32,442 nt of DNA from Zoogloea sp. GTDB taxonomy: Bacteria > Pseudomonadota > Gammaproteobacteria > Burkholderiales > Rhodocyclaceae. The notes under the pieces were generated by a model. That model was not told the DNA's origin. It ran no database searches and saw only the letters and a program-made list of their open reading frames with translations. The translations under genes and the position numbers were made by a program. Position 1 is the stretch's first letter, and the number at the start of each line of letters is the position of its first letter. The stretch is taken from NCBI RefSeq assembly GCF_028689785.1, contig NZ_JAQVCN010000057.1:1-32442 (forward strand). Direction: 5' to 3'. Positions 17,991 through 25,495 of the stretch are shown piece after piece.

Positions 17991-20138
17991 CTAAAGGCCC
18001 GCCGGCAGGGGGCTAAGCCCCTGGGGCATGCGAATGCCGTTGCGCAGGGCCTGGGCCAACATCTTGGCCGACATGGGCCGGGCAAAGAGATAACCCTGGA
18101 TGAGGTGACAGCCCCGCTGATGCAGGGCCGATAGCTGGGAGACCGTCTCAACGCCCTCGGCCACCACTTCCAGCCCCAGACTGTGGGCCAGCCCGATCAC
18201 CGCTTCGACGATGGCAATACCCTGGCCGTCGTCCAGCTCATTAACGAAAGAGCGGTCAATCTTGAGGGTATCCACGGCCAGCCGGCGCAGATAAGCCAGG
18301 GACGAATACCCCGTACCGAAGTCGTCCACCGCCACCCGCACCCCCATCTCGCGCAGCTGGGCCAGGATGTTTGTGGCGTAATCCAGATCACGCATCAGCA
18401 CCGTCTCGGTGAGCTCGAACTCGATGCGCGAGGCAGGCACGCCGGCCCGCTCCAGCTCGCTCCGGACCGTGGGGATCAACTGGGCGTCCATGAAGTTGAT
18501 GCCGGAGAGATTGACGCTGATGCGGAAATCGGTGGGCAGGCTTGAGCCCCACTCGGCAATGTCGGCGCACACCCGCTCAAACACCGCACGACTGAGGGGC
18601 ACGATCATGCCGGTCTCTTCGGCCAGGGAAATGAACTCGGGGGGCGGCACCGGCCCGCGCCCCATGTGCGGCCAGCGCACCAGGGCCTCGGCCTTGACGA
18701 TGGTGCCGGTGGCTGCATCGACGATGGGCTGATACACCACCCGCAGTTCATCATCACCAATGGCCCGGCGCAGCTCGCCTTCAAGGGTGAAGCGCAAGAA
18801 GGCCGCCACCTTCATCTCTTCGGAAAACAACGCAACCGGCTCACCATTGGTACGCTTGGCGCGGTTGAGCGCCGTCTCGGCCGCCTTCAGCAGCGCGTCG
18901 GCGTCACCCGCATGGTCGGGCATCACAGCCAGGCCGATGCGCGCCGACAGGGTGATGTCCTGCCCCGGCACGTGGATGGGTGCCCGCACCACCCGCAGCA
19001 GCTGATGGGCGACCGCCAGCATTTCGTCCAGGTCGCCCACGTCGGGCGTCAGGACCCCGAACTCGTCCGCCGCCAGACGGGCCACCTTGAAGCTCGGCAG
19101 AGCGCCACCGCCCGCCGGCTCGGCAGGGGCCCGGTCGCCCATGCTCTCGCGCAGACGGTGGCCGATGACCTGCAGCACCTGGTCACCACGCTCGGGCCCG
19201 AGGCTGTCGTTGATACGAGCAAAGCGGTCGATATCCACCACCATCACCGCACACCGGCTGTCATTGCGTAGGCAGCGCACGGCAGCCCCCAGTAGGTTTT
19301 CGCGGAAGAACTCCCGGTTGGGCAGACCGGTAAGATGATCGAAATAGGCCAGCTGGCGGATGCGCCGCTGGGCGTCTACCTGGTCGGTGATGTCCTGGGC
19401 GCTGCCTTCCATGACCAGGCCGGCGGTCTCGTCGGGATCGCCAGGCTCCACGGTCTCCAACACCGTGCGCACACTGCCGTCGGGCCACACCACCCGATAG
19501 GTCAGCTGAAAGCCGATGCCCCGGCGGGCACCATCGAGGGCCCCCGCCACCAAGGGCCGGTCGGGTACATAGACATGCTCCAGCACCGCCTCCATGTGCT
19601 CACCGAAGTCGCTGGCCGGCTGGCCGAACAGCCGGTAGTACTGATCCGAGCGCTGCACACGGTTTTCCTGAACGAACCACTCCCAGCTACCCAGGCGGGC
19701 GATACGCTGGGCATTGGAGAGACTCTCCTTATTACGAGTCAGCTCCTTCATGACCTGGGCCGAACGCAGCACATAGCGGATGCGGAAACGCAGCAGGGTC
19801 CAGTTGATCGGCTTGGAGATGAAGTCGGTAGCCCCCACGTCGAACGCACGTTGCACCGAATCACCATCATCCAGCCCGGTGAGCATGATGATCGGGACCA
19901 AGGCTCCACCCGGCCGGGCGCGTAGCTGCTGGCACACCTCGAAGCCACTCAGGCCAGGCATCATCACGTCGAGCAGCACGAGATCGGGCAGCGCCGAATC
20001 GAACAGGCTCAGGGCCTGCACCCCGTCTTCAGCCTCCAGGGTGACGAGCCCACCCTCGCGCAGGGCCTCGGAGGCCATCAGGCGGGTCAGGGGGTCATCG
20101 TCCACTACCAGGACGCGGGCACTTTCACTTACCGTCAT
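17991..20138 (-). CDS. Response regulator REC-PAS-GGDEF(degenerate)-EAL, probable c-di-GMP phosphodiesterase
   Basis: Cytoplasmic protein of 715 residues. The receiver (1-125) has DDD at 13-15, phosphoacceptor D57 in LLDVMMPG, T87 and K109. A PAS/PAC domain spans about 140-255. The GGDEF domain (about 260-440) has its signature changed to AADEF (356-360); the upstream metal-binding DID (302-304) remains. Cyclase activity is unlikely, though GTP binding could persist. The EAL domain (about 450-700) looks complete: EALVRW at 484-489, ELTE (575-578), DDFGTGYSS (605-613), K627 and AEGVE (660-664). The protein is therefore expected to hydrolyse c-di-GMP under control of phosphorylation. Its start overlaps the stop of the hybrid kinase gene by four bases (ATGA), so that kinase, which ends in an HPt domain, is the evident phosphodonor. 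It is the last gene of the TonB/YfiR operon. Confidence 0.93.
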
Positions 20139-23467: not shown

Positions 23468-25495
23468 TCAGAAGCGCCACACGCCCTGGATGAAGGCCCG
23501 CCGAGGCTGGTAGACCGGCTGGCTGGGGAAGAAGTTTGAGACGTACTCCAGGTGCAGGGGGTCGAACAGATTCTGGGCGACGAAATACAAGTCGAAGTAG
23601 CGGCTCACTCGCCAGGCGTAGCGGAAGTCCACCGCGGTGTAGGCCGGTACATCACCGGCACCGACGGCGCCCACATGGCGTGCTGCGACGTCGACCTCCT
23701 TGCCACCACCCAAGTTGAAGCTCATGCGCAGGGTGCCCCAATGCTGGGGGGCCGCCTGCTCCAGGGCCCGGCCGCCCACGGCCGCCGCCTCGTCCGCACC
23801 GCGGCGGACCCGAGTATCCATAAGCGTGTAGCTCGCCTGCAGGCGCAGGGCGTCGGTCACCGGTACATCCACCGCGAGTTCCACACCGTGGCTGCGGGCA
23901 CTCCCCTCACTGCCACGCTGCATGTATTGCAGGGGAGCAACGAAGGGCTCCACGGGCAGGGACGAGGTGGGCAAGATCAGGCCGCTCGGGTCGTACCATT
24001 CGGAGACCAGGCGATGGTAGTTGTTATGAAAGAGCACCGCTTCCACACTGCCATTGCCAAGATTGCGCCGATAACCCAGCTCCAGGGTATCGACCCGCTC
24101 GGCGCGACGGTTCCAGCCCGGTCCCGGTCGCGAGCCGACAACGACAAGAGGAAACGGGCTGCCTGCCGGCGTCGGCTGGGCGCCAAAGAGGATTGACGCA
24201 TCACTCTCGCCGATGGACAGGGTGCGCGCGGCCCGGGACCAGCTGGCCCACAAGCTATCCTTGAGGTTGGGGGTCCACATCAGGCGGGCGGTCGGCTGGG
24301 GCTCGAAACGTGCCAGGCTGGAGTACTCGAAGCGCCCCCCCAGGGTCAGCTTCCAGGTCTGGGGATCCAGGGTGATCTCGTCCTGCACGAAGGCGCTGAA
24401 CACCCGGACGTTACGTCGGGGCGGAGTCAGATTGAGCACTGCCGAAGTGGCGATGATCTCGGTCTGGACCATTCGCGCGCCCAGGCCCCACATGAGCTCA
24501 TGGGTGCCCGAGGGCACCAGCCGGTGCTGGAAATCCAGGTCGGCCGTATTCACCGTACCGCGGCCGTAGGTACCCACGTTGGCCAGCTGGTGGTCCATGT
24601 AGGCCTGCAGTGAGGCCTCGCCCCCGGCCAGCCCCCAGTTGTAGCGGCCCAGCAGGTTGGTGCTTTCGAAGACGAAATCGAGGGGGATCAGCAGCCCGTC
24701 GCCGGTCAGGCTGGAGGTATTGATGTTCTCGCCGCTGGTGCGGCGGCTGGTGTTGCCCTGAAGCATCCAGGCATCAACGCCGGAGCCGGCGCCATCCATG
24801 CGGAAACCTGCCAGCCAGCCCCGGTTGTAATCCGGCTCGCTGCGCCCGTCACGAGTGTGGGACGGGGCCAGATCGCTGCCCTTGGCGTAGACCCGCATCG
24901 CCCCGGCGTCACCGAGAGAGACGCCCTGACGCACGGCAACCGTGGGGTTGCCTCGGTCGTCCACGCTGGCCGACACCAGTCCGCCCAAGCTTGTGGTGGC
25001 CTTGCGGGTGACGATGTTGATTACCCCGTTCACCGCGTTGGCCCCCCACAGGGAGGCGCCCGGCCCGCGGATCACCTCGATCCGCTCCACGTCGGCGAGC
25101 ATCACATCAAGAGCTTCCCAGAACACGCCGGAGAACAGAGGGCTGTACACACTGCGCCCATCGATCTGGACCAGCAGTTTGTTGGAAAAGCGCCCCTCGG
25201 CCCCACGCACGCCCACCGCCCAGCGCCCGGACCCGATCTGCGCCACGATCACCCCCGGCACCTCGCGCAGGGCTTCAGGAACGCTCCGCGCACCACTGCG
25301 CCGAATGTCCGCCGCCGACAGCACGGTGATCGCTGCAGGCGTGTCGGAGAGCTTCTGTGCCTTGCGCGACACGGCGCTCACATCGAGACGGACCAGTTCT
25401 TCCAGGCTCAGGTCCGCCAGTGACGCCTCCCCGGCAGTCGCTACCGTGGTCCAGCACAGGGTCGGAGCAAGGAGGCATGCAAGACGTCGACTCAT
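23468..25495 (-). CDS. TonB-dependent receptor
   Basis: Outer-membrane protein of 675 residues. A signal peptide (about 1-22, ending near VATAG) precedes a plug domain (about 45-160): DTPAAITVLSAADIRRSG, then a VRG-containing stretch, then RIEVIRGPGASLWGANAVNGVINIVT, the hallmark TonB-receptor segment. The barrel fills the rest and ends in GVWRF with a terminal aromatic residue, as required for barrel insertion. A canonical TonB box is not obvious; LEELVRLDVSAV near 30 is the family's usual opening. The start at 25495 follows AAAAGAT and gives a good signal peptide; the open frame continuing upstream is antisense to glnS. It heads an operon with yfiR-like, hybrid kinase and EAL regulator genes, so it may act as a surface sensor or as an importer whose ligand or activity is monitored. 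Ligand unknown: no heme, siderophore or cobalamin gene adjoins. Confidence 0.92.
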   Translation of the reverse strand: MSRRLACLLAPTLCWTTVATAGEASLADLSLEELVRLDVSAVSRKAQKLSDTPAAITVLSAADIRRSGARSVPEALREVPGVIVAQIGSGRWAVGVRGAEGRFSNKLLVQIDGRSVYSPLFSGVFWEALDVMLADVERIEVIRGPGASLWGANAVNGVINIVTRKATTSLGGLVSASVDDRGNPTVAVRQGVSLGDAGAMRVYAKGSDLAPSHTRDGRSEPDYNRGWLAGFRMDGAGSGVDAWMLQGNTSRRTSGENINTSSLTGDGLLIPLDFVFESTNLLGRYNWGLAGGEASLQAYMDHQLANVGTYGRGTVNTADLDFQHRLVPSGTHELMWGLGARMVQTEIIATSAVLNLTPPRRNVRVFSAFVQDEITLDPQTWKLTLGGRFEYSSLARFEPQPTARLMWTPNLKDSLWASWSRAARTLSIGESDASILFGAQPTPAGSPFPLVVVGSRPGPGWNRRAERVDTLELGYRRNLGNGSVEAVLFHNNYHRLVSEWYDPSGLILPTSSLPVEPFVAPLQYMQRGSEGSARSHGVELAVDVPVTDALRLQASYTLMDTRVRRGADEAAAVGGRALEQAAPQHWGTLRMSFNLGGGKEVDVAARHVGAVGAGDVPAYTAVDFRYAWRVSRYFDLYFVAQNLFDPLHLEYVSNFFPSQPVYQPRRAFIQGVWRF

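What the first reader, a model, noticed from the sequence alone, without database searches (positions are those of the whole stretch)
17991..25495. A rewired Yfi system: TonB receptor, YfiR, CHASE8-like hybrid kinase and EAL response regulator in one operon
Seen: four minus-strand genes with a 10-base gap and two ATGA overlaps encode an outer-membrane TonB-type receptor, a YfiR-family periplasmic protein, a hybrid kinase whose periplasmic domain resembles that of YfiN, and a REC-PAS-GGDEF(AADEF)-EAL protein. Known: in Pseudomonas YfiBNR, periplasmic YfiR represses YfiN, whose periplasmic sensor is fused directly to a GGDEF cyclase. Inference: here the same sensing module is joined to a phosphorelay (HK-REC-HPt) that ends in a c-di-GMP phosphodiesterase. 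The signal would then be amplified and its sign possibly reversed, and a TonB receptor would take the place of the lipoprotein YfiB.
Basis: partly seen in the sequence, partly recalled or inferred. Interest (0 to 1): 0.75.

Follow-up and report, generated by a model that had tools for sequence, protein, structure and literature searches.

The report
Outer-membrane sensor driving c-di-GMP breakdown
A floc-forming wastewater bacterium (Zoogloea) carries a four-gene operon in which an outer-membrane receptor and a periplasmic YfiR-type protein probably feed a histidine-kinase relay that ends in an enzyme predicted to destroy the biofilm messenger c-di-GMP; it is a well-conserved variant of a sensor family already known in outline.

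Summary
The four genes are real: TonB-type receptor, YfiR/DUF4154, CHASE8-HAMP-HisKA-HATPase-REC-HPt kinase, REC-PAS-GGDEF*-EAL regulator, in a Zoogloea genome. YfiN's YfiR-docking phenylalanine is kept in 127 of 128 distinct CHASE8 domains of YfiR loci, against 4 of 8 without YfiR beside them. Output looks phosphodiesterase-only: nine EAL residues intact in 56 of 56 regulators, canonical GGDEF in 12 of 56. But kinase-output Yfi systems were reported in 2012 (PMC3375315), the receptor-periplasmic pair is VpvAB (PMC12456836), and NCBIfam has models for receptor, YfiR-like protein and kinase. So: known kind, new variant. Extra result: in nine genomes part or all of the sensor is missing while the regulator remains, seven with an HPt; stand-alone HPt is under purifying selection in one clade (dN/dS 0.07-0.10), relaxed in another (0.45). 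The effect on c-di-GMP in vivo is untested.

The parts
23468..25495 (-). TonB-type outer-membrane receptor, 675 aa, relative of NCBIfam TOL_0244 receptors
   Evidence: Pfam Plug and TonB_dep_Rec_b-barrel; NF053590 520.5 bits, below its cut-off 645; AF2 plug-in-barrel model pLDDT 84.8, best PDB match E. coli Cir
22906..23457 (-). YfiR/DUF4154 periplasmic protein, 183 aa
   Evidence: PF13689 E=4.4e-45; solved P. aeruginosa YfiR matched at E=1e-12; NF053591 124.1 bits, below its cut-off 125
20135..22909 (-). hybrid histidine kinase, TM-CHASE8-TM-HAMP-HisKA-HATPase-(weak REC)-REC-HPt, 924 aa
   Evidence: Pfam domains; H284, D698, H854
22460..22780 (-). CHASE8 periplasmic sensor domain
   Evidence: PF17152; AF2 pLDDT 91.9 for residues 1-211, PAS/Cache-type fold
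22709..22711 (-). codon for kinase F67, equivalent of YfiN F70 in the AAVVF motif (here SPLRF)
   Evidence: 127 of 128 distinct CHASE8 domains of the fetched YfiR loci have F here
20252..20446 (-). C-terminal HPt domain of the kinase (H854)
   Evidence: PF01627; survives as a separate gene in related genomes
17991..20138 (-). response regulator REC-PAS-GGDEF(AADEF)-EAL, predicted c-di-GMP phosphodiesterase, 715 aa
   Evidence: Pfam; catalytic residues
19059..19073 (-). AADEF, degenerate GGDEF signature
   Evidence: AADEF in all 22 regulators of the window's own Zoogloea clade
18075..18776 (-). EAL domain with intact catalytic set
   Evidence: PF00563 E=4e-76; nine key residues kept in 56 of 56 relatives
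25616..27514 (+). glutaminyl-tRNA synthetase family gene (glnS), conserved flank that anchors the locus
   Evidence: Pfam tRNA-synt_1c; next to the reduced loci L203-L207 and to the regulator in another genus, L208

Best explanation
The operon is a three-compartment signalling line. The outer-membrane receptor senses a ligand or an outer-membrane state; periplasmic YfiR carries that information by docking on the CHASE8 domain of the inner-membrane hybrid kinase (through the patch around kinase F67 and YfiR F150); when YfiR lets go, the kinase passes phosphate H284 -> D698 -> H854 -> D57 of the regulator, whose EAL domain hydrolyses c-di-GMP, which should lower aggregation. Shown by sequence: gene order, domains, intact phospho-acceptors, intact EAL, degenerate GGDEF, conserved docking residues, near-obligate co-occurrence. 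Inferred: that YfiR inhibits (rather than stimulates) the kinase, that phosphorylation activates the EAL domain, the ligand, and the effect on flocs.
For: Pfam and operon structure. Co-occurrence 63/71 and 63/73; TonB barrel within 800 bases on the same strand of 61 of 71 DUF4154 genes and within 9 kb of 67; 22 of 24 TOL_0244-type receptors over 350 bits in 31 genomes lie beside DUF4154. YfiN F70 equivalent is Phe in 127/128 distinct CHASE8 domains of YfiR loci, the most conserved column, against 4/8 CHASE8 domains without YfiR within 2 kb (Fisher 2.5e-5, not corrected for kinship). YfiR F162 equivalent is Phe in 112 of 136 distinct sequences. EAL residues 56/56, REC Asp 56/56, canonical GGDEF 12/56 with at least five changes of state on the tree.
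Against: No biochemical data; no complex could be folded. The NCBIfam trio is matched only below its curated cut-offs. The regulator is kept without receptor, YfiR and kinase in several genomes, so it is not tied to this sensor alone. In G006/G008 the kinase core is deleted while receptor and YfiR persist, so those two can outlast the kinase. Some relatives with the same gene order (Methyloversatilis, Cognatazoarcus, MAG REEB376) keep a canonical GGDEF, so phosphodiesterase-only output is not universal.
Confidence: 0.6

Rival explanations
1. YfiR is a ligand-binding co-activator rather than a repressor: a substrate imported by the receptor binds YfiR, and loaded YfiR docks on CHASE8 and switches the kinase on (as proposed for VpvABC, where VpvA imports a signal sensed by VpvB and VpvC).
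For: VpvABC is described this way (PMC12456836, introduction passages); TOL_0244 rises sevenfold on C28 alkane against Tween 80 and resembles OmpS, linked to alkane sensing (PMC6304351 passages); the receptor model has plug and barrel.
Against: The docking residues conserved here are those through which P. aeruginosa YfiR is thought to repress YfiN (PMC3375315 section 8). None of the four operon genes is an inner-membrane transporter.
Confidence: 0.27
2. The operon is mainly an uptake system whose kinase regulates import; the EAL protein is incidental.
For: TonB receptors are usually importers (recalled); 16 of 50 adjacent CHASE8 kinases have no REC-EAL regulator next to them.
Against: 34 of the 50 have one; the regulator's D57 and EAL are intact; kinase and regulator overlap by ATGA.
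Confidence: 0.08
3. The regulator is a c-di-GMP or GTP effector (degenerate enzyme) rather than an active phosphodiesterase.
For: The GGDEF half is degenerate.
Against: All nine EAL catalytic/binding residues examined are kept in 56 of 56 relatives.
Confidence: 0.05

Closest known systems
YfiBNR (P. aeruginosa)
   Same: YfiR-family periplasmic protein beside a CHASE8/PAS-HAMP membrane protein; docking Phe and YfiR hydrophobic patch conserved
   Different: TonB-type receptor in place of a YfiB lipoprotein gene; kinase phosphorelay and EAL regulator instead of a fused GGDEF cyclase
Divergent Yfi systems with kinase output, e.g. Thauera sp. MZ1T (PMC3375315, section 12)
   Same: GGDEF output replaced by (hybrid) sensor kinase, yfiB usually missing
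   Different: The main text has no mention of TonB and section 12 names no EAL regulator beside the kinase; its Table S4 was not seen
VpvABC (V. cholerae) and the vpvAB pair (PMC12456836)
   Same: Outer-membrane protein gene followed by a periplasmic-protein gene; the paper states that vpvAB occurs without vpvC in many genera
   Different: VpvC is a membrane cyclase; here kinase plus phosphodiesterase. No sequence comparison with VpvA/VpvB was run; a CHASE8-GGDEF/YfiR/TonB set is in this same genome (L036)
NCBIfam TOL_0244 receptor / TOL_0243 YfiR-like / HK_near_YfiR_like (NF053590-NF053592)
   Same: Same three-gene neighbourhood by model names; near full-length matches
   Different: All three score below the curated cut-offs (520.5<645; 124.1<125; 141.2<194)

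Membership tests
YfiBNR-type system | YfiR-family periplasmic protein | tested here: met
   PF13689 4.4e-45; YfiR structures E=1e-12
YfiBNR-type system | CHASE8/PAS periplasmic domain with the YfiR-docking Phe (YfiN F70) | tested here: met
   CHASE8 5e-12; F67, motif SPLRF; mapping rests on the motif in PMC3375315, YfiN itself was not aligned
YfiBNR-type system | Sensor fused to a GGDEF cyclase | tested here: not met
   Kinase domains instead
YfiBNR-type system | YfiB (OmpA/PAL) lipoprotein in the operon | tested here: not met
   The outer-membrane gene is a TonB-type receptor; the rest of the genome was not searched for YfiB
VpvABC system | Outer-membrane protein gene directly beside the YfiR-type gene | tested here: met
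   10-base gap
VpvABC system | Membrane cyclase VpvC as third gene | tested here: not met
   Kinase; a CHASE8-GGDEF/YfiR/TonB set lies elsewhere in the genome, L036
VpvABC system | Sequence homology to VpvA and VpvB themselves | not tested
   V. cholerae proteins were not fetched
NCBIfam TOL_0244/TOL_0243/HK_near_YfiR trio | Score above curated cut-off | tested here: not met
   520.5<645, 124.1<125, 141.2<194; the paralogue kinase at C38 passes (211.9)
TonB-dependent receptor | Plug plus transmembrane beta-barrel | tested here: met
   Pfam, AF2 model and PDB matches to Cir, PfeA, BtuB; barrel strands were not counted
TonB-dependent receptor | Functional TonB box / TonB dependence | tested here: inconclusive
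   By eye the N-terminal stretch lies where a TonB box would be; residues 1-34 of the model are disordered
Phosphorelay to an EAL phosphodiesterase | Intact H-D-H-D acceptors and EAL catalytic residues | tested here: met
   H284, D698, H854, D57; EAL 56/56
Phosphorelay to an EAL phosphodiesterase | Phosphotransfer and c-di-GMP hydrolysis | not testable with these tools
   Needs purified proteins

The most novel reading that the evidence does not exclude
The HPt-phosphodiesterase pair is the durable core of the locus and a shared input node: receptor, YfiR and kinase core are a plug-in sensor that is repeatedly lost while HPt and regulator remain and take phosphate from other kinases. In the Z. 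ramigera group the plug-in has split: receptor and YfiR remain without their kinase (G006, G008), while an orphan CHASE8 kinase with the perfect AAVVF docking motif and no YfiR beside it sits elsewhere (G006, G008, and G004), next to a REC-GGDEF regulator in two of the three, so the same sensor may now raise c-di-GMP where its relatives lower it.
Probability: 0.2. Interest if true: 0.7.

Novelty: new variant of a known kind. Interest (0 to 1): 0.45.

Why it matters
Zoogloea makes flocs on which activated-sludge treatment depends, and c-di-GMP is a general switch between aggregated and free cells. If right, one genome uses paralogous receptor-YfiR sensors that face a predicted c-di-GMP maker (L036) and a predicted c-di-GMP destroyer (window), a natural experiment on how one sensor type acquires opposite outputs. 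The erosion series around glnS shows which parts of such a relay can be lost. It also suggests that, in the genomes surveyed, YfiR is mainly a kinase partner, whereas the experiments seen in the papers opened here are on cyclase fusions.

Tried and rejected
Rejected: that kinase output of a Yfi system is new (PMC3375315 section 12). Rejected: that the operon is peculiar to this strain. Considered and dropped: HPt-regulator as the ancestral state with the sensor added later; outgroup genera carry the full operon, some beside glnS, so loss needs fewer steps, though the tree is a quick one without bootstrap and has long branches. The promoter/terminator scan gave nothing usable (2 promoter-like sites against 0.8 expected, 1 terminator-like against 3.5). 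A profile search of solved structures with the CHASE8 alignment found nothing; the structure search gave general PAS/Cache domains and does not single out YfiN. Opened at passages and found without bearing on this operon: PMC4784049 (no YfiR, no TonB), PMC9012009, PMC8919034, PMC11045786 (its 'vpvb' hits are VpVbrR), PMC8754643 (VpvA, VpvB called hypothetical), PMC8846402 (CHASE8 listed as CACHE-like), PMC5174103 (OmpS and alkane sensing). Literature searches: (41 and 91 on flocs and OmpS); none listed a receptor-YfiR-kinase-EAL operon, but only title lines and abstract starts of most hits were seen, the library holds only openly licensed PMC papers, and Table S4 of PMC3375315 was not seen.

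Counts and rows mended: the script filed L072, L140 and L144 as kinases because my HAMP-HisKA profile fires on HAMP; they are CHASE8-GGDEF-EAL, and recounts with HATPase required. In one search the row L049/L044 under 'HPt' is in fact the whole kinase (pattern not found) and was dropped. In one search the row L057 was cut from the wrong place and is ignored. My notebook says 30 genomes with DUF4154 in its second checkpoint; one search says 29 of 60, own included.
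Full report
WHAT IS THERE. The operon was confirmed as described. On the minus strand lie a TonB-type receptor (23468-25495), a DUF4154/YfiR protein (22906-23457), a hybrid kinase (20135-22909) and a REC-PAS-GGDEF-EAL regulator (17991-20138), with a 10-base gap and two ATGA overlaps. Pfam gives Plug 3e-22, barrel 2e-26, DUF4154 4e-45, CHASE8 5e-12, HAMP 9e-9, HisKA 1e-18, HATPase 4e-26, REC 3e-32, HPt 5e-6; regulator REC 9e-27, PAS_3 6e-8, GGDEF 4e-32, EAL 4e-76. 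Phospho-acceptors H284, D698, H854 and D57 are present. The 16 closest named YfiR matches (70-94% identical) are all titled Zoogloea or Zoogloeaceae, so the window is from that genus.

CO-OCCURRENCE. In 60 genomes (own included) 29 hold 71 DUF4154 genes. I fetched the surroundings of all 71 (the window itself is one). A TonB barrel lies within 800 bases on the same strand in 61, within 9 kb in 67. The CHASE8 neighbour is a kinase in 50 (34 with a REC-EAL regulator next), CHASE8-GGDEF in 8, CHASE8-GGDEF-EAL in 3, split or cut off in 2 (L046, L177), absent in 8. Independently, Pfam CHASE8 was searched in the same 60 genomes: 73 places above cut-off, 63 of them within 2 kb of a DUF4154 gene; 63 of 71 DUF4154 genes have CHASE8; the 13 weaker CHASE8 places below cut-off have none. 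The receptor is fairly specific: in 31 genomes, 24 places match the TOL_0244 receptor model at over 350 bits and 22 are beside a DUF4154 gene; the other two (G016, G007) are on other contigs than that genome's DUF4154 genes; three more places at 209-215 bits are not beside one (weaker matches than E=1e-60 were not asked for). The 80 named loci (81 YfiR genes) are the best matches to the window's YfiR, so not a random sample: 69 have an adjacent CHASE8 kinase (36 with a REC-EAL regulator), 4 a CHASE8 kinase within 3 kb but not adjacent on the same strand, 2 CHASE8-GGDEF-EAL, 4 a CHASE8 gene in which no HATPase was seen, 2 none; TonB adjacent in 67. Adjacent kinases occur beyond Proteobacteria, e.g. 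in MAGs titled Acidobacteria, Verrucomicrobia and Nitrospinia.

ONE GENOME, OPPOSITE OUTPUTS. This genome has four DUF4154 genes: the window; L034 (TonB-YfiR-large hybrid kinase-REC-REC-PAS-GGDEF-EAL with a canonical GGDEF); L035 (TonB-YfiR-CHASE8 kinase-REC); L036 (CHASE8-GGDEF, YfiR, TonB). So paralogous receptor-YfiR sensors face a predicted cyclase in one place and a predicted phosphodiesterase in another.

THE YfiR-KINASE INTERFACE. Genetics in P. aeruginosa places YfiR binding at YfiN AAVVF (66-70) and at YfiR residues 160, 162 and 183 (PMC3375315, section 8 and passages). The PDB alignment maps YfiR F162 to F150 of the window protein, and residues 160 and 183 to V148 and L171. Across 128 distinct CHASE8 domains of the fetched loci (127 of them within 2 kb of a YfiR gene) the F70 column is the most conserved of the domain (127 F, 1 Y), the window reading SPLRF. 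Of 10 above-cut-off CHASE8 genes without DUF4154 within 2 kb, 8 gave a domain by my profile; 4 lack the Phe (QALVV, TALAS, TPVAN, TPMIQ) and 4 have it. Those 4 are three orphan kinases (AAVVF) and L197, which lies a few genes from a YfiR gene. Fisher 127/128 against 4/8 gives 2.5e-5; setting the trio aside and moving L197 to the YfiR side gives 4e-7. That second split was made after seeing the data, and kinship is ignored in both. YfiR F162 equivalents are Phe in 112 of 136 distinct sequences.

OUTPUT. Of 56 distinct regulators alignable from REC through EAL to the window's, all 56 keep nine EAL catalytic or binding residues and the REC aspartate; 12 have GGDEF, 44 not (AADEF 22, DGDAF 7, DEADF 5, others); at least five changes of state on the tree. 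Left out by that span rule are, among others, REC-REC-PAS regulators (L034, L067, L068: canonical GGDEF), L054/L150 and L137 (canonical), contig-cut ones (L050/L077, L091), and the Hahella pair L127/L139, canonical GGDEF but EFL in place of EAL. Repeated loss of the cyclase signature with the EAL side kept argues for phosphodiesterase output in the window's group. Residue roles are recalled from the EAL literature, not from a call.

EROSION OF THE SENSOR. Beside glnS the locus takes four forms in Zoogloea: full; receptor-YfiR-HPt remnant-regulator (G006, G008; the remnant keeps a piece of the HisKA region fused to HPt); HPt-regulator only (G015, G019, G020, G021); regulator only (G013). G008 matches the named Z. 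ramigera NBRC 15342 contig by length. Another genus of the family has glnS-regulator alone (G029, L208), and G027 (L209) has HPt-regulator whose HPt is closest, among fetched proteins, to the kinase HPt of Methyloversatilis (52%), in the same regulator clade. That makes nine genomes with a reduced sensor, seven with an HPt. G034 (L210) has a kinase without detected CHASE8 before the regulator. Full operons with glnS in the same fetched stretch are also in Cognatazoarcus and Rhodocyclaceae MAGs, so loss is the simpler reading. Pairwise dN/dS (Nei-Gojobori, own script): stand-alone HPt in the HPt-only clade 0.071-0.095 (5 pairs of four sequences, not independent); HPt in intact kinases 0.072-0.244 (5 pairs; one failed row dropped); HPt remnant in G006/G008 0.449; regulators 0.039-0.177; in G006/G008 YfiR 0.247 and receptor 0.194. 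So HPt is constrained in one reduced lineage and relaxed in the other: for and against the shared-node idea.

COMPLEMENTARY ORPHANS. Among the 8 CHASE8 genes without nearby DUF4154 that could be read, the AAVVF motif is found in G004, G006 and G008 only: hybrid kinases with no YfiR beside them; REC-GGDEF is next to the kinase in G006 and G004, not seen in G008. Their nearest relative among fetched loci is the kinase of a Tepidiphilus receptor-YfiR operon (58-59%). In G006 and G008 receptor and YfiR have lost their own kinase. That the two halves pair is a guess; the three kinases are 82-94% alike, hence perhaps one event.

STRUCTURE. Kinase 1-211 folds at pLDDT 91.9 as a PAS/Cache-type domain between two helices, nearest WalK. 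The receptor folds as plug in barrel, nearest Cir (E=3.5e-32). Complexes could not be folded.

PRIOR ART AND VERDICT. [quoted passage not shown] PMC12456836 (section 14 and passages) describes vpvAB as a conserved pair with or without vpvC. NCBIfam models carry the trio by name; the window scores below their cut-offs, while the C38 paralogue kinase passes. TOL_0244 is the receptor that rises sevenfold on C28 alkane against Tween 80 (PMC6304351, passages). What this work adds is the four-gene phosphodiesterase version, its recurrence, its opposition to a cyclase version in one genome, the docking-residue test, and the erosion series. New variant of a known kind; interest moderate.

Noticed in passing
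L037:2412-5695 (G006) and L038:9911-13238 (G008): The kinase core between YfiR and regulator is deleted; an in-frame HisKA scrap fused to HPt remains, with relaxed constraint (dN/dS about 0.45).
   Followed up: yes
L204:8248-11074, L205:5379-8063, L206:4786-7683, L207:6333-9132, L209:8416-10946: Stand-alone HPt gene directly upstream of the EAL regulator, without receptor, YfiR or kinase; in the four Zoogloea the HPt is under purifying selection.
   Followed up: yes
L191:4567-7524, L192:1976-4756, L193:3-2951: Orphan CHASE8 hybrid kinases with a perfect AAVVF motif and no YfiR beside them (G008, G006, G004); REC-GGDEF next to it in L192 and L193.
   Followed up: partly
window 10441-16866 and 27770-30220: The operon is surrounded by other c-di-GMP genes: an EAL-REC protein, an HDOD protein, a PAS kinase, a REC-HD regulator above the NCBIfam 'NosR family' phosphodiesterase cut-off, and a HAMP-PAS-GGDEF-EAL protein.
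   Followed up: partly
window 6356-10513 (-): Two long overlapping ORFs on opposite strands; the minus-strand one is likely the gene (DEAD/HA2 helicase domains with DUF3418; 94% to a relative over 486 aa).
   Followed up: partly
L046:7041-9810 (G009; same locus as L078): Kinase gene split into two overlapping frames between CHASE8 and HisKA; frameshift or assembly error not resolved.
   Followed up: no
L057, L065, L157, L159, L160, L166: A second Zoogloea version with order YfiR-kinase-regulator-TonB and DEADF or DESDF in place of GGDEF; EVL in place of EAL in the two read.
   Followed up: partly
L048, L073, L154-L156 (G050): One genome with seven DUF4154 hits, five without CHASE8 within 2 kb, four of these beside a TonB gene (L048 twice, L073, L155); in L156 DUF4154 is inside an 864-aa kinase ORF.
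   Followed up: no
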